DNA of 64,000 nucleotides, taken from Solirubrobacter deserti. Lineage in GTDB: Bacteria > Actinomycetota > Thermoleophilia > Solirubrobacterales > Solirubrobacteraceae. The stretch lies in the NCBI RefSeq assembly GCF_027587175.1, contig NZ_JAPCID010000042.1, forward strand, positions 1 to 64,000, given 5' to 3'. The notes beneath the pieces were generated by a model. The model had not been told where the DNA came from and made no database searches. It was given only the letters and a program-made list of their open reading frames with translations. Of the stretch, positions 51,988 through 59,176 are shown piece after piece; the stretch's first letter is position 1, and every line of letters starts with the position of its first letter. The translations under genes and the position numbers were made by a program.

Positions 51988-52626
51988 TCAAGGCAGGATC
52001 TGCATCACCACACCGAAGACGCCACACACGGCCGCGGGTGTGCCGCGGCCGTCCTGGCGCACGCCGCCCTGGATGATCGCGTTCTGGCCGGCGAACTCGA
52101 TGTGGAACACGAACGTGTTCGAGCCGCCGACGCTCAGCGACGTCGCCGTCTGGTTGGCCGCGAGCGTGAGCGCGCCGTCGCCGTTGCCGACCCGGCGTGC
52201 GATGTTGATCGTCTGGCCGGACGTGTTGTTGAACGTGATGACCGAGATCGGGTCCTCGTTGCCGGGCGCCGCGTTCTGGTCGTTGCAGGTGGCGGTGAGG
52301 GTGCCAAGGCCGCGGATCGACTGGATCAGCTGCGGCGCGCCAGGAGCGTTGTCGGCGACCTCATAGCCCTTGCTGAAGGACTGCGTGCGCGCCACGTCGG
52401 CGACGAACTTGCCGGGGATGCGGCCCGCGTCCGTGCCGCCGCTGTTGGTGGCCACGAGCTTCCCACGGGCGTCCGAGAGGCTCGCGCCGGCATAGACCGC
52501 GCTCTTGCCGTCGACGGACCCGGCCCGCGCTGCGTAGTTGACCGCCGCGATGCTCGTGCCGCCCAGCGACACGAACAGGGCGATGCTCGCCACCACCATC
52601 GACGGTGAAGGTCGAGAGATCTTCAT
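51988..52626 (-). CDS. Secreted protein of Thermoleophilia type, function unknown
   Basis: A 212-residue protein with a signal peptide whose sequence (S-R-P-S-P-S-M-V-V-A-S-I-A-L-F-V-S-L-G-G-T) is a common N-terminus of exported proteins in Solirubrobacterales. The mature part looks beta-rich and ends in F-H-I-E-F-A-G-Q-N-A-I-I-Q-G-G and A-A-V-C-G-V-F-G-V-V. AAGGGGG lies eight bases before the ATG. The longer in-frame reading from 52854 adds only low-complexity Pro/Gly sequence. Confidence 0.75.
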   Translation of the reverse strand: MKISRPSPSMVVASIALFVSLGGTSIAAVNYAARAGSVDGKSAVYAGASLSDARGKLVATNSGGTDAGRIPGKFVADVARTQSFSKGYEVADNAPGAPQLIQSIRGLGTLTATCNDQNAAPGNEDPISVITFNNTSGQTINIARRVGNGDGALTLAANQTATSLSVGGSNTFVFHIEFAGQNAIIQGGVRQDGRGTPAAVCGVFGVVMQILP

Positions 52627-52737: not shown

Positions 52738-52978
52738 GATGCTGAGAAGCGGTAGGCCGGGGGTCAATCGGCGTCCGCCTCGAGGCGCCGGCTGGAGGGT
52801 TGTGCCGGTGCCGTATGGAGGAGGGAATCGTGGGTCAAACGATCCCTTGTGCATGGCGAGAGAGCTGCCGAGCCAAAGTCAGCTCCCCGCCTATGTCAGT
52901 TCGACGTCCATGTCGCCGCGGCTCCCGGGGGGTCAGTCCGTCGGCCGCTGAGCGAATGATGCGCTTCTCGCGTTGCTT

Positions 52979-53012
52979 AAACCTTGGAGAAACCTTGGCG
53001 AGCCGATAGCTT
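52979..53012 (+). promoter_or_regulatory. SARP binding site and promoter
   Basis: AAACCTTGG occurs at 52979-52987 and 52990-52998, an 11-bp period. The second copy is eight bases upstream of TAGCTT (53007-53012), which is the published geometry for SARP sites such as that of AfsR at afsS. It stands in front of the SARP gene itself. Confidence 0.8.
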
Positions 53013-53024
53013 GCCGCTCACACG

Positions 53025-56000
53025 GTGGTCGAAGGCTGGGACATCCGCTTGTGCGGGCCCGTTCTCGTCGAGGCGAATGGGCGTCGACTCGACGCAGGGC
53101 TCCCAGGGCGCCAGGGGCGTCTGCTGTTCGCGTACCTGGTCCTCAACCGTAGCCGCGGCTGCCCGCGCGACGAGCTGATCGACGCCCTGTGGCCCGAAGG
53201 GCCGCCCGCCGCCGCCGACTCGGCGCTCAGCGCGCTGTTGTCGAAGCTGCGCCGCGCGCTGGGTGAAGGCGTGCTGACGGGCCGCGGCGAGCTGCGCCTG
53301 CGGCTTGAGGGCTCGGTCAGCGTGGACATCGAGAGCTCGCGGATCGCGATCGCCGAGGCCGAGGCGGCGATGGAGGCCGGCGACCACGCGTTGGCGGCGG
53401 TACGGGCGCGCGACGCGCTGCTCACCGACCTGCAGACGTTCCTGCCCGACGCCGAGGGCGGCTGGGCGGCCGAACAGCGGCGCGAGCTGGAGACGCTGCG
53501 CCTGCGCGGCCTGGAGACGCTGGCCGAGGCCGGGCTGCGGGCGGGCGGGCGTGAGCTGGGCTCGGCCGAGCAGGCGGCGCGGGCGGCGATCGCGGCGGCG
53601 CCGTTCCGCGAGTCCGCGCACCGGCTGCTGATGGAGGTCCACGAGGCCGCGGGCAACCCGGCGGAGGCGCTGCGGGCGTTCGAGGAGCTGCGGTCGCTGC
53701 TGCGCGAGGAGCTCGGCACGACGCCCGGGCCGGCCGCGATGACGGTCTTCGAGCGCGTGCTGCGCGGCGAGCCGCCTCCCACCTACCGCGGTCCGGCGCC
53801 GGTCGTCGCCTCCCCCGTCGCGCTCGAGCCCGCGCCCTGGCCCGCGCCGCTCGCGGCGGCGGTGGACCGGCACGCGCTGATCGGCCGCCGCGTCGAGCTC
53901 GCCTTCCTGGAGCGCTGCTGGCGTGAGGGCGCCGACGGGCAGCGGGCGCTCGTGCTGCTGGCCGGCGACGCCGGGATCGGGAAGACGCGGCTCGCGGCGG
54001 AACTTGCTCGCACCGCGCACGAGGACGGCGCCGCCGTGCTCTACGGGCGCTTCGACGAGGAGACCCTGACGCCGTACCAGCCCGTGGTCGAGATGCTGCG
54101 CGGCTGGTCGGCGGGCGCGCCGCTGGACGCGCTGCGCGACCGACTCGGCCCGCGCGCGGCCGAGTTGGCGATCCTGCTGCCGGAGTTCGGCCCGCCGCCC
54201 GCCGATCACGTGGGCGGCAGCGGCGTGAGCGGGGCCGAGGCCGACGCGCAGCGTTTCCGGTTCTTCGACGCCGTCGCCGCGCTGTTGGGCGAGATCGGGT
54301 CCGAGGCGCCGGTCGTGCTCGTGTTCGACGACCTCCAGTGGGCGGACCGGCCGACGCTCCAGCTGCTGCGGCACCTGGTGCGCTCGCCCGCGCCGCGGCG
54401 CGTGCTGTTCCTCGGCACCTACCGCGAGAGCGAGATCTCCGACCGCCATCCGCTGCACGAGCTGATCGGCGACCTGCGGCGCGAGGGCACGCTGCGGCGC
54501 CTGGAGCTCGGCGGGCTCGCGGAGCTCGAGGTGGGTGAGCTGGTGGCCGAGCTCGCGCACGCGCCGGCTTCGGAGTCGTTCGTGCACGCGCTCGCGGGCG
54601 AGACCGAGGGCAACCCGTTCTTCATCGAGGAGGTCGTGCGCCACGTCCGCGAGACCGCGGGCGCGTTGAGCGAGGAGGTGACGCTGGAGGAGGCGGGCGT
54701 GCCGGACGGCGTGCGCGAGGTCACCTCCCGGCGGCTGCGCCGGCTGAGCGAACCGACGCACGCCGTGCTGCTCGTGGCCTCGGTCATCGGGCGCGAGTTC
54801 GACTACGACGTGCTCGCGACGGTCGTCGACCGGCCCGACGACGACCTGGTGGAGGCCTTGGAGGAGGCCGTCGAGGCGCGCGTGCTGCGGGAGATCGGGC
54901 ACGTGGGCCGCTACGGCTTCACGCACGGCCTGGTCCGGGCGACGCTCTACGACTCGATCTCCCAGCTGCGGCGCGCGCGGCTGCACGGGCGGGTGGGCGA
55001 GACGCTCGTGTCCCTGCGTGGTGGCGACCTGGACCCGCACCTGGCGATGCTCGCCCACCACTTCGCGCAGGCCGCGCCGGTGGAGCGTCCGGATCGGGCG
55101 ATCGACTTCGCGCTGGCCGCGGCGCGGCGGGCGGACCGGCTGCTGGCCTGGGAGGAGGCCGCGCAGCACTACCGGGCGGCGCTGCGCGCGCGGGAGCTCT
55201 CGGGCGCGGTCGACGACCACGTGCGCGCGGAGCTGCTGCTGGCGCTCGGCGCGTCGGAGGAGCGCGCGGGGATGGAGAGCGAGGCGCGCGAGAGCTTCGC
55301 CGCCGCGATCCGCGTCGCGCGCGGGCTGCACGACCCGGTGCTGCTCACGCGCGGCGTGCTGGGGCAGGCCGGCCCGTGGTCGGCGCTTTCGCGCTCGGAC
55401 CCCGAGCGCGTCGCGCTGCTGGACGAGGCGATGACCGAGCTGCCCGAGGACGACTCCCCGCTGCGCGCGCGGCTGCTCGCCCGCATGTCGCTCGAGCTCT
55501 ACTACGCGGGCGAGCCGGAGCTGCGGCTGTCGCTCTCGGACGAGGCGCTGCGGATCGCGCGCCGGCTCGGCGATCCCCGGACGCTCGCCGCCTGCCTGGA
55601 CGCGCGCCACTACGCGCTGTGGCGGCCCGAGAACACCGAGGAGCGGCTCGCGGTGGCCGCGGAGCTGCGCGGCGTGGCCGAGCAGACCGGCGACCCGGAG
55701 CTCGAGCTCCAGGGCGCCGCCTGGACGATCATCGACCTGATGGAGCTCGGCGACATCGACGGCGTCGACATCCAGATCGCGGCGGTGTCGAAGTTGGCCG
55801 ACGCCCTGCACCGGCCGATCTGGCTGTGGTGGGCGGGCCTGTTCCGCGCCACCCGCGCGTTGCTGGACGGCCGCTTCGACGAGGCCGAGCAGCTCGCCCA
55901 GGAGACGCTGGCGATCGGCCAGCGCGGCCAGGCCGAGAACGCCCTGCACTACTACGCGCAGTGCATGTACTCGGTCCGCCGCGAGCAGGGCCGGCTCGCC

Positions 56001-56582
56001 GAGGTCGAGGGCGCCGTGCGCAACTTCATCGAGCTCTACCCGGCGATCCCCGCGTGGCGCTCGGCCCTGGCGCTGCTGCTGATCGAGCTGGGCCGGCCGG
56101 ACGAGGCGCGCGCGGAGTTCGAGGTGATGGCCGCCAGCGGGTTCGACATCCCGCGCGACGCCAACTGGCTCGTCGCGGTGACCGTGCTCGCCGAGGTGTG
56201 CGGCGCGCTGGGCGACGCCGCGCGCGCGGGCCAGCTGTACGCGATGCTCGAGCCGTACGCGGGCCGCAACGTGGTCGTGGGCCGCAACGCCACCTTCAAT
56301 GGGTCGGCCTCGTGGTTGCTGGGGCTGCTGGCCGCGGCGCAGGGGCGATACGAGCTGGCCGAGTCACACTTCGCCGCAGCGCAGGAGATGCACGTGGCGA
56401 TGGGCGCGCGGCCCTTCCAGGCGCGCACGCAGGTGGCGTGGGCGGAGATGCTCCTGGCTCAGGGGGACGTCGAGCGCGCGTCGGAGATGCTCGCGGACGC
56501 GATCCTGGTCGCGGACGCGTTGGGGATGGTCGTGTTGGCCGAGCGGGCGCGGTCCTTGGTGCCGGCGGCCAAACCGGCCTAG
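53025..56582 (+). CDS. Large SARP-family regulator (AfsR-like)
   Basis: An 1185-residue transcription activator. Residues 5-98 form an OmpR/PhoB-type winged helix (R-L-L-F-A-Y-L-V-L-N-R, S-A-L-S-A-L-L-S-K-L-R-R-A-L), about 100-245 the BTAD domain ending L-R-E-E-L-G-T-T-P-G-P, and from about 285 an AAA/STAND ATPase with Walker A G-D-A-G-I-G-K-T (314-321) and Walker B V-V-L-V-F-D-D-L-Q-W-A-D (about 428-439). The rest is TPR-like helices. SARPs usually switch on secondary metabolism, but no cluster is visible here. GTG start 12 bases after a -10. Confidence 0.92.
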   Translation: MVEGWDIRLCGPVLVEANGRRLDAGLPGRQGRLLFAYLVLNRSRGCPRDELIDALWPEGPPAAADSALSALLSKLRRALGEGVLTGRGELRLRLEGSVSVDIESSRIAIAEAEAAMEAGDHALAAVRARDALLTDLQTFLPDAEGGWAAEQRRELETLRLRGLETLAEAGLRAGGRELGSAEQAARAAIAAAPFRESAHRLLMEVHEAAGNPAEALRAFEELRSLLREELGTTPGPAAMTVFERVLRGEPPPTYRGPAPVVASPVALEPAPWPAPLAAAVDRHALIGRRVELAFLERCWREGADGQRALVLLAGDAGIGKTRLAAELARTAHEDGAAVLYGRFDEETLTPYQPVVEMLRGWSAGAPLDALRDRLGPRAAELAILLPEFGPPPADHVGGSGVSGAEADAQRFRFFDAVAALLGEIGSEAPVVLVFDDLQWADRPTLQLLRHLVRSPAPRRVLFLGTYRESEISDRHPLHELIGDLRREGTLRRLELGGLAELEVGELVAELAHAPASESFVHALAGETEGNPFFIEEVVRHVRETAGALSEEVTLEEAGVPDGVREVTSRRLRRLSEPTHAVLLVASVIGREFDYDVLATVVDRPDDDLVEALEEAVEARVLREIGHVGRYGFTHGLVRATLYDSISQLRRARLHGRVGETLVSLRGGDLDPHLAMLAHHFAQAAPVERPDRAIDFALAAARRADRLLAWEEAAQHYRAALRARELSGAVDDHVRAELLLALGASEERAGMESEARESFAAAIRVARGLHDPVLLTRGVLGQAGPWSALSRSDPERVALLDEAMTELPEDDSPLRARLLARMSLELYYAGEPELRLSLSDEALRIARRLGDPRTLAACLDARHYALWRPENTEERLAVAAELRGVAEQTGDPELELQGAAWTIIDLMELGDIDGVDIQIAAVSKLADALHRPIWLWWAGLFRATRALLDGRFDEAEQLAQETLAIGQRGQAENALHYYAQCMYSVRREQGRLAEVEGAVRNFIELYPAIPAWRSALALLLIELGRPDEARAEFEVMAASGFDIPRDANWLVAVTVLAEVCGALGDAARAGQLYAMLEPYAGRNVVVGRNATFNGSASWLLGLLAAAQGRYELAESHFAAAQEMHVAMGARPFQARTQVAWAEMLLAQGDVERASEMLADAILVADALGMVVLAERARSLVPAAKPA

Positions 56583-56608
56583 GGGGCGAAACCGTCCGCC
56601 TCGGGGCC

Positions 56609-56614
56609 TAGGTT
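56609..56614 (+). promoter_or_regulatory. Candidate -10 box of radA, leaderless
   Basis: TAGGTT ends seven bases before the radA ATG. Confidence 0.4.
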
Positions 56615-56621
56615 CTTCGAC

Positions 56622-57974
56622 ATGCCCCGCGCGACCACCGTCTTCGTCTGCTCCGCCTGCGCCGCCGAGACGCCGCGCTGGATGGGGCAGTGCCCCGGCT
56701 GCAACGCGTGGAACACGCTGGTCGAGGAGAACCGCGGCGCGGCCGCGAGGAAGGGCGGCGGCGGAGCGCCGCGCGCGGCGGCGACGAGGCCGACCCGGCT
56801 CGCCGAGGTCGCCGCGGAGCGCCACGCGCGCCTGCACACGGGCATCGGCGAGTTGGACCGCGTGCTCGGGGGAGGGCTGGTGCCCGGCAGCCTCGTCCTG
56901 CTCGGCGGGTCGCCCGGAATCGGCAAGTCGACGCTCACGAACATGGCGCTCGGCAACCTCGAGGGCGCGGGGCGCAAGACGCTCTACGTCTCCGGGGAGG
57001 AATCCGCGGCGCAGATCCGGCTGCGCGCCGAGCGGCTGCCCGGCGCCGCTTTGCAGGTGCCCGTGCTGGCCGAGACCGACCTGGACACGGTGCTGGCGAC
57101 GATGGAGGCCGAGGCGCCGGACGTGTGCGTGGTGGACTCGGTGCAGACGCTGCACGCGTCCGACCTCACGGGTGCGGCGGGCAGTGTCGGCCAGGTGCGC
57201 GAGGTCGCGGACCGGATCACGCGCGTGGCCAAGCAGCGCAACATCGCCGTGCTGCTCGTGGGCCACGTGACGAAGGAGGGCGCGCTGGCCGGGCCGCGTG
57301 TGCTCGAGCACCTCGTGGACTGCGTGCTGCAGTTCGAGGGCGAGCGCGAACGGACGTACCGCACGCTGCGGGCGCTCAAGAACCGGTTCGGCTCCACGAA
57401 CGACGTCGGCGTGTTCGAGATGAAGTCGGGCGGCCTGGTGGAAGTGCAGGACGCGTCCGCGCGCTTCGTCGGCGAGGCGACGCGCGCGCCCGGGAGCGTC
57501 GTGCTGGCGGCGATGGAGGGCTCGCGGCCGCTGCTGGTCGAGGTGCAGGCGCTCGTCTCGCCCTCCGAGCTCGTGCCGCCCCGGCGGGTGGTCAACGGGA
57601 TCGATCGCAACCGGCTCGCGCTCGTGCTGGCCGTGCTGGCCCGGCACGCCGGGATCGGGGCCGGAAGCGCCGACGTGTTCGTCAACGTCGCGGGCGGCGT
57701 CCGGATCGACGAGCCGGGTGCGGACCTCGCGGTCGCGCTGGCCGTCGCGAGCGCTGTGCGCGGCGTCACGATGGGTGAGAGCACGCCGATCGCGTGCTTC
57801 GGCGAGATCGGCCTCACCGGCGAGCTGCGGTCCGTCGCGCACGACGACCGGCGCCGCGCGGAGGCGGCGAAGTTCGGCCTGTCACCGGTACTGTCACCCG
57901 GTCCGGAGACACCCACTCTGCGCGCTGCGGTGCGGGCCGCACTCGGCGCTCCGCTCGCCCGTGTAGCAGCCTGA
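56622..57974 (+). CDS. radA: DNA repair protein RadA (Sms)
   Basis: RecA-like motor that promotes branch migration and processing of recombination intermediates. The 450-residue protein has the zinc finger Cys10-Cys13-Cys24-Cys27, Walker A G-G-S-P-G-I-G-K-S-T (95-104), the RadA-specific K-N-R-F-G (253-257), and a C-terminal Lon-like domain ending R-A-A-L-G-A-P-L. It lies just upstream of disA, the usual neighbour. AlkA, sir2 and this gene are the DNA-repair-linked items in the window. Confidence 0.96.
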   Translation: MPRATTVFVCSACAAETPRWMGQCPGCNAWNTLVEENRGAAARKGGGGAPRAAATRPTRLAEVAAERHARLHTGIGELDRVLGGGLVPGSLVLLGGSPGIGKSTLTNMALGNLEGAGRKTLYVSGEESAAQIRLRAERLPGAALQVPVLAETDLDTVLATMEAEAPDVCVVDSVQTLHASDLTGAAGSVGQVREVADRITRVAKQRNIAVLLVGHVTKEGALAGPRVLEHLVDCVLQFEGERERTYRTLRALKNRFGSTNDVGVFEMKSGGLVEVQDASARFVGEATRAPGSVVLAAMEGSRPLLVEVQALVSPSELVPPRRVVNGIDRNRLALVLAVLARHAGIGAGSADVFVNVAGGVRIDEPGADLAVALAVASAVRGVTMGESTPIACFGEIGLTGELRSVAHDDRRRAEAAKFGLSPVLSPGPETPTLRAAVRAALGAPLARVAA

Positions 57975-58060: not shown

Positions 58061-59176
58061 GTGATGCAGCCGCGATCAGGGGAAGAGCTCAATGAGCTCG
58101 AAGCGCGGCAAGAGCCCCGGTTGGTGAAGGCCCTCGAGATGGTCGCACCGGGGACCGCGGTACGCGAGGGAATCGACAACATCGTCCACGCGCGCACCGG
58201 CGGTCTGATCGTCATCGGCGATCCCGACGAGCTGGCGTTCTTGTTCTCAGGCGGTATCCGGCTGGATATCGACTACACGCCTGCGCTCGTCTACCAGCTC
58301 GCGAAGATGGACGGCGCGATCGCGCTCAACGCCAACGCGACCAAGATCGCGTGGTGCAACGTGCAGCTGATGCCCGACCCGACGATCCTCACGTCGGAGA
58401 CCGGCACGCGCCACCGCACGGCCGAGCGCATCTCCAAGCAGACCGACGCGCTGGTGATCGCCGTCTCGCAGCGCCGCGACGTCGTCTCGCTGTACGTCGA
58501 TGGCGCGAAGTACATCCTCGAGGAGATCCCCGCGGTGCTCGCCAAGGCCAACCAGGCCCTGGCCACGCTGGACAAGTATCGCTCCCGCCTGGATCAGGTC
58601 TCCACGCGCCTCACGGCGCTGGAGTTCGAAGGCGGGGTCACGCTCCACGACGTCCTCACCGTCCTGCAGCGCGCCGAGCTGGTGACGCGCATGGCGGTGG
58701 AGATCGAGCGCTACATCGTCGAGCTCGGCACCGAGGGCCGCCTGATCGAGATGCAGCTCGAGGAGACGATGGTCGGCGTCGCGGGCGACAAGGCCGCGCT
58801 GCTGCACGACTATCTGGCCGATCCCGTCGAGGACGCGTTCGCGATGGCGCTCGACGGCATCTCGCGCCTGCCGCATCAGGACCTGCTCGACTTCGGTCGC
58901 CTCGCCGAGCTGCTCGGCTATGACCGCAAGGTCAACACGCTGGACTATCCCGTCTCGCCCCGCGGCTACCGCATCCTCGGCCGCATCCCGCGGCTCCCGA
59001 AGCTGGTGGTGCAGAACATCGTCCGCGAGTTCCGCGGGCTGGACGAGATCTTGGCCGCCACCGATCCAGAGCTGGAGTCGGTGGAGGGCGTTGGTGAAAT
59101 CCGGGCGAAGGACATCCGCGAGGGCCTTCGCCGCCTGCAGGAGATCAACCTCGTGGACCGCTACTTGCAAACCTGA
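58061..59176 (+). CDS. disA: DNA integrity scanning protein DisA, diadenylate cyclase
   Basis: Makes c-di-AMP from two ATP and slows when bound to branched DNA. The 371-residue octamer-forming protein has the DAC motifs D-G-A (84-86) and R-H-R (117-119), a linker of helices, and a C-terminal HhH domain (V-E-G-V-G-E-I-R-A-K-D-I). Start GTG at 58061; the next codon is ATG at 58064, so either may be used, and the -10 supports the first. radA, disA and carD are adjacent, linking DNA repair, c-di-AMP and transcription. Confidence 0.96.
   Translation: MMQPRSGEELNELEARQEPRLVKALEMVAPGTAVREGIDNIVHARTGGLIVIGDPDELAFLFSGGIRLDIDYTPALVYQLAKMDGAIALNANATKIAWCNVQLMPDPTILTSETGTRHRTAERISKQTDALVIAVSQRRDVVSLYVDGAKYILEEIPAVLAKANQALATLDKYRSRLDQVSTRLTALEFEGGVTLHDVLTVLQRAELVTRMAVEIERYIVELGTEGRLIEMQLEETMVGVAGDKAALLHDYLADPVEDAFAMALDGISRLPHQDLLDFGRLAELLGYDRKVNTLDYPVSPRGYRILGRIPRLPKLVVQNIVREFRGLDEILAATDPELESVEGVGEIRAKDIREGLRRLQEINLVDRYLQT

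What the first reader, a model, noticed from the sequence alone, without database searches (positions are those of the whole stretch)
52979..53012. Autoregulatory SARP site in front of the AfsR-like gene
Two AAACCTTGG repeats with an 11-bp period end exactly eight bases upstream of a TAGCTT -10, which is the reported geometry of SARP targets. The downstream gene is itself a SARP, so positive autoregulation is likely. The repeats give a concrete motif with which to find its regulon, which may include a secondary-metabolite cluster elsewhere.
Basis: partly seen in the sequence, partly recalled or inferred. Interest (0 to 1): 0.6.

Follow-up and report, generated by a model that had tools for sequence, protein, structure and literature searches.

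The report
Self-targeting switch of a SARP activator
A soil actinobacterium (genus Solirubrobacter) carries, directly in front of a SARP-type regulator gene, two identical DNA words spaced one helix turn apart exactly where such regulators activate promoters, and comparison with relatives indicates that the regulator recognises its own promoter and at least one other conserved promoter; this is a well-supported new example of a known kind of switch.

Summary
AAACCTTGG occurs at 52979-52987 and 52990-52998 (11-bp period), 8 bp before TAGCTT (53007-53012), 12 bp before the GTG (53025) of a 1185-aa SARP (DNA-binding domain + BTAD + AAA ATPase + TPR). In six Solirubrobacter genomes the 22 bp 52979-53000 are identical in front of the ortholog, the longest invariant run of the intergenic region (next 10 bp; 0 of 5000 column shuffles reach 22). 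Taking TAGCTT as -12..-7, they occupy -40..-19, the register of the AfsR afs box. SARP genes here carry 11- or 22-bp-phased repeats in the last 85 bp upstream far more often than other spacings, each with its own word. TTGG-N7-TTGG precedes 13 of 14 genes of this DNA-binding-domain clade and almost no other SARP gene. This supports self-recognition; activation is inferred from position. The regulon guess fails for secondary metabolism: the pair occurs once in the genome. One further operator is conserved in five of six genomes: a perfect ACCTTG triple before TAAGTT or TAAGGA, upstream of a DUF4097 (weakly LiaG-like) gene with a sensor-kinase frame. The protein is not an AfsR ortholog. New member of a known kind; binding, start site and sign are untested.

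The parts
52979..53000 (+). predicted SARP operator: two 11-bp direct repeats AAACCTTGGAG + AAACCTTGGCG (9-bp words 52979-52987 and 52990-52998), register -40..-19
   Evidence: invariant in six species, 0/5000 column shuffles; afs-box register from PMC10936776
52968..52976 (+). possible degenerate third repeat one turn upstream (only TTG 52973-52975 invariant)
   Evidence: alignment; matched as third unit with 2 mismatches in G000, G003, G004, G005
53007..53012 (+). -10 element TAGCTT (TAGCGT or TAGGTT in relatives)
53019..53020 (+). predicted transcription start, giving an almost leaderless mRNA
   Evidence: inferred from the afsS register; no Shine-Dalgarno is visible before GTG 53025
53025..56582 (+). 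large SARP gene, 1185 aa: DNA-binding domain about residues 4-95, BTAD 100-246, AAA_16 285-462, C-terminal TPR
53223..53255 (+). codons of the predicted recognition helix (residues 67-77, ALSALLSKLRR; A70 and K74 at the AfsR T88 and R92 positions)
   Evidence: alignment to AfsR chains; AfsR base contacts from PMC10936776
52746..52969 (.). conserved, probably structured block next to the operator (several hairpins, closing stem 52746-52752 with 52963-52969); strand and function unknown
   Evidence: no Rfam match in the 1-kb query
56622..57974 (+). radA, 39 bp after the SARP gene
   Evidence: order kept in relatives
58061..59176 (+). disA, diadenylate cyclase

Best explanation
52979-53000 is the operator through which the SARP encoded at 53025-56582 acts on its own promoter. 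Two DNA-binding domains lie side by side on the repeats, one per helix turn, over the -35 region of a promoter with a weak -10 (TAGCTT), and recruit sigma and RNA polymerase as AfsR does at afsS. The transcript starts a few bases before GTG 53025 and is almost leaderless, so the gene feeds back on itself, most likely positively. The ATPase and TPR part probably gates the activity. A second target, a promoter with three ACCTTG words upstream of a DUF4097/sensor-kinase locus, is conserved in five of six species. Shown: word, spacing, -10, conservation, tracking of the word with the DNA-binding domain. Inferred: binding, start site, activation, signal.
For: Geometry identical to the afs box. 22 invariant bp in six species against 50% invariance of the intergenic region; 0 of 5000 column shuffles reach 22. 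Among 101 genomes the exact pair occurs only in the six that have the close ortholog, always in front of it. SARP genes as a class have repeats at lag 11 (14.2 of 86 groups) and lag 22 (12.1) in -85..0, other lags 3.2 +- 1.8, shuffled lag 11 mean 3.4; an earlier grouping showed no such peak at -185..-100 or -285..-200. TTGG-N7-TTGG within 150 bp upstream: 13 of 14 members of the DNA-binding-domain clade, L317, and 0 of the other 73; group level p = 0.02. The one clade member without it, L302, has Arg where the window protein has Lys74. Perfect ACCTTG triple once in five of six genomes, reversed-pattern control 0, words kept while spacers change.
Against: No binding, expression or start-site data. 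In several non-Solirubrobacter MAGs (L303-L308, L168, L171) the box AACCTTGGAGAAAGGTTGG lies a few bases before the start codon, contains an SD-like GGAGAAAGG and could form a hairpin, so its role there may differ. At group level the link between word and helix rests on few groups (p = 0.02), and the sequence-level counts are not independent. Not every SARP paralog shows a clear repeat. In the second target the gap to TANNNT differs by 1 bp, and only two of the five species have a strict TANNNT there.
Confidence: 0.75

Rival explanations
1. Another SARP or another regulator, not the gene's own product, binds the repeats, so the gene is one step in a cascade.
For: The genome has about ten other BTAD matches, and a paralog in G002 (L275/L091) has a similar word, GCCTTG twice at 11 bp.
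Against: The word follows this protein's DNA-binding domain across genera and not those of other SARPs; other paralogs carry other words before their own genes.
Confidence: 0.13
2. The repeats are an operator for a divergent transcript on the minus strand (a structured RNA in 52969-52746 or the exported-protein gene ending at 51988), and the effect on the SARP gene is secondary.
For: The conserved structured block abuts the box; in the small-SARP MAGs the box sits between divergent genes.
Against: A minus-strand -10 is not conserved, whereas the plus-strand TAGNNT at 8 bp is; the upstream flanks differ among the relatives.
Confidence: 0.06
3. The box is only a -35 region of a sigma-factor promoter without an activator; the repetition is chance or an element of another factor.
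For: A single 9-bp tandem at period 11 is not rare in shuffled DNA of this composition.
Against: Both words are frozen equally over six species; no sigma-70-type site is found by the scan; the class-wide peaks at 11 and 22 bp are unexplained.
Confidence: 0.04
4. The box represses rather than activates its own gene.
For: Autoregulation need not be positive; in the small-SARP MAGs the box lies close to the start codon.
Against: In the window the box lies at -40..-19, the activating position of AfsR.
Confidence: 0.1

Closest known systems
AfsR / afs box at the afsS promoter, Streptomyces coelicolor (PDB 8HVR, 8K60, 8JKE; PMC10936776)
   Same: two 11-bp direct repeats at -40..-19 with a -10 at -12..-7; homologous DNA-binding domain + BTAD (E 1.6e-21); a nucleotide-binding and a TPR part behind the SARP domain
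   Different: different word (AAACCTTGG against CGTT(T/C)ATCG); residues at the two base-contact positions differ (A70/K74 against T88/R92); AAA_16 instead of NB-ARC; far below the AfsR equivalog cut-off; target is its own gene rather than afsS
PimR and other SARP-LAL regulators (PMC5930380)
   Same: SARP domain followed by an ATPase part without a LuxR HTH; operators of two or three words with 11-bp spacing
   Different: word CGGCAAG there; described target is pimM; here the C-terminus has TPR matches and only a partial match to a kinase/cyclase family (TIGR03903, 189.8 against a cut-off of 705.75)
OtcR of Streptomyces rimosus (PMC4393881)
   Same: 9-nt direct repeats with 11-bp spacing, 3' repeat 8 bp before the -10, 5' repeat over the -35 region
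   Different: small SARP acting on oxy biosynthesis promoters
CcaR, an autoregulatory SARP (Santamarta et al. 2002, read only as a citation in PMC4393881)
   Same: a SARP that binds its own promoter
   Different: a cluster regulator of Streptomyces clavuligerus; its sites were not compared here

Membership tests
SARP family of activators | N-terminal OmpR-type DNA-binding domain followed by BTAD | tested here: met
   BTAD 69.4 bits (cut-off 22.1), Trans_reg_C 22.3 bits (below its cut-off of 26.2); profile match to AfsR and EmbR structures
SARP family of activators | direct-repeat operators spaced 11 or 22 bp, 3' repeat 8 bp from the -10 | tested here: met
   definition in PMC10936776
SARP family of activators | transcriptional activation through RNA polymerase contact | not testable with these tools
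   needs in vitro transcription
AfsR ortholog | NCBIfam equivalog cut-off (1430 bits) | tested here: not met
   105.7 bits
AfsR ortholog | NB-ARC-type nucleotide-binding domain | tested here: not met
   Pfam reports AAA_16, AAA_22 and a sub-threshold NACHT match, no NB-ARC
SARP-LAL (PimR type) | SARP domain + LAL/cyclase-like ATPase, no C-terminal LuxR HTH | tested here: inconclusive
   AAA_16 found and no HTH family at the C-terminus, partial TIGR03903 match; no direct comparison with PimR was run

The most novel reading that the evidence does not exclude
SARP genes in this order generally mark themselves: each carries its own target word, phased at 11 or 22 bp, in its near-leaderless promoter, so the DNA words of many uncharacterised SARPs could be read from sequence alone and related to recognition-helix residues (Lys at the AfsR-R92 position going with TTGG).
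Probability: 0.4. Interest if true: 0.6.

Novelty: new member of a known kind. Interest (0 to 1): 0.42.

Why it matters
A held-library search for papers naming both Solirubrobacter and SARP gave five hits, which by title and abstract are soil or waste microbial-community studies, so a well-defined operator with a conserved second target is a concrete entry point. If the self-marking pattern holds for the class, the targets of orphan SARPs could be predicted from their own promoters.

Tried and rejected
Secondary-metabolite regulon: pair and 22-bp-spaced patterns searched in six genomes gave no biosynthetic target; matches at 3 mismatches are about as frequent as with reversed control patterns. 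A site upstream of a gene starting MTLSLEDVQ in G002 and G005 lacks a -10 at 8 bp and is left as noticed. Triple CCTTG sites at G003:C158 and G001:C3 lie near a signal-peptide-like gene, without a -10 at the expected distance. Riboswitch idea for the upstream block and for the second target: no Rfam family. SARP-radA-disA operon: the order is kept, but radA has its own TAGGTT 7 nt before its ATG in the window, and the gap reaches about 370 bp in relatives, so co-transcription is not needed.

Full report
What is there. The reading frame 53025-56582 encodes 1185 aa with BTAD (100-246), AAA_16 (285-462) and C-terminal TPR matches; the N-terminal winged-helix match is weak in Pfam, but a profile of six orthologs finds the AfsR structures at E 1.6e-21 and EmbR at 2.7e-14. 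The window lies in a genome of the genus Solirubrobacter, judged by the named relatives that carry the ortholog.

More than chance. In the genome the pair occurs once at up to 3 mismatches. Among 101 genomes the exact pair occurs only in six, G000-G005, each time in front of the ortholog. In the alignment of the six, half of the intergenic columns are invariant; the longest invariant run is 22 bp, 52979-53000, the next is 10, and no run of 22 appears in 5000 column shuffles. The -10 keeps TAGNNT.

Register. In PMC10936776 the afs box is two 11-bp repeats at -40..-19, the upstream one over the -35 element, and SARP targets are described as repeats 11 or 22 bp apart ending 8 bp from the -10. Placing TAGCTT at -12..-7 puts 52979-53000 at exactly -40..-19 and the start at 53019 or 53020, 5-6 nt before the GTG. 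So the mRNA would be almost leaderless (inference).

A class feature. Upstream regions of SARP homologs from this genus and others were scanned for repeats at every lag from 5 to 35. In the last 85 bp, lags 11 and 22 stand out: 14.2 and 12.1 of 86 groups, against 3.2 +- 1.8 for other lags and 3.4 for shuffled DNA at lag 11; with an earlier grouping the peak was absent further upstream. The words differ between paralogs, for example CGATCAGCA, GCTGACAC, GCAACGG, CGCGGCCA. Many of these genes have TANNNT 6-16 nt before the start codon.

Word follows protein. For 88 loci with both DNA-binding domain and upstream DNA, TTGG-N7-TTGG is present upstream of 13 of 14 members of the window protein's domain clade, of L317, and of none of the other 73; at group level p = 0.02. 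The position equivalent to AfsR R92, a base-contacting residue, is Lys in the window protein; the clade member lacking the word, L302, has Arg. A caveat: in the MAGs L303-L308, L168 and L171 the box overlaps an SD-like stretch close to the start codon, so function there is unclear.

Regulon. A triple ACCTTG at 11-bp spacing occurs without mismatch once in each of G000, G001, G003, G004 and G005 and not with the reversed pattern. It lies at the same locus: words kept, spacers variable, TAAGTT (G000, G004) or TAAGGA (G001, G003, G005) 8 bp after the last ACCTTG. Upstream is a divergent PLP-enzyme gene; downstream are a DUF4097 gene with a weak LiaG-family match and a frame with Sensor, HisKA_3 and HATPase_c domains. 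About 270 bp separate this promoter from the DUF4097 start, which has its own TACGGT. G002 keeps a related locus without the triple (matched by its coding start by eye). No biosynthetic cluster was seen among the sites examined.

Neighbourhood. radA and disA follow the SARP gene in all four relatives checked; an ATP-dependent Clp chaperone gene lies upstream in three of them, the fourth record being too short. Between the upstream gene and the operator lies a conserved block, 52746-52969, with a consensus fold: 10 pairs with changes on both sides against 4.2 in shuffles, 1 of 500. Fold energies do not settle its strand, and no Rfam family matches.

Judgement. The finding is a well-supported SARP operator, most likely autoregulatory, in a genus for which I found no published SARP work. 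The kind is known. Binding, start site and sign remain to be shown.

Noticed in passing
52746-52969: Conserved block with several hairpins (loops with GGGTCA on the plus strand), covariation in six species, directly beside the operator; no Rfam family matched; strand unknown.
   Followed up: partly
L251-L261, L273, L242-L246 (for example G000:C399:282695, G000:C424:40705): A dispersed element of roughly 180 bp in Solirubrobacter starting with the hairpin GGCCGCCGCGC-TGGTCAG-GCGCGGCGGCC, with a second GGTCA hairpin and a GGGGTGA...TCACCC hairpin; nine of these loci gave no meaningful Rfam match, and some stems covary.
   Followed up: partly
L084-L160, mainly G000-G005: Other SARP genes carry their own 11- or 22-bp-phased repeat words just before the start codon, and many have TANNNT 6-16 nt before it.
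   Followed up: partly
L303-L308, L168, L171: Small-SARP MAG loci with AACCTTGGAGAAAGGTTGG a few bases before the start codon; the box overlaps an SD-like stretch, could form a hairpin, and lies between divergently transcribed genes.
   Followed up: partly
L072, L073 (G002:C4:106613, G005:C1:602980), also G004:C291:82809: TGTCCTTGGYGAAACCTTGG (TCTTTGGCAAAACCTTGG core in G004); in G002 and G005 it lies upstream of a gene starting MTLSLEDVQ (looks like FolE2 by eye, not tested).
   Followed up: no
L263, L264: Triple CCTTG words at 11-bp spacing conserved between G003 and G001 near a signal-peptide-like gene, in the opposite orientation to that gene.
   Followed up: no
56561-56640: radA in the window has TAGGTT 7 nt before its ATG, a near-leaderless promoter of its own.
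   Followed up: no
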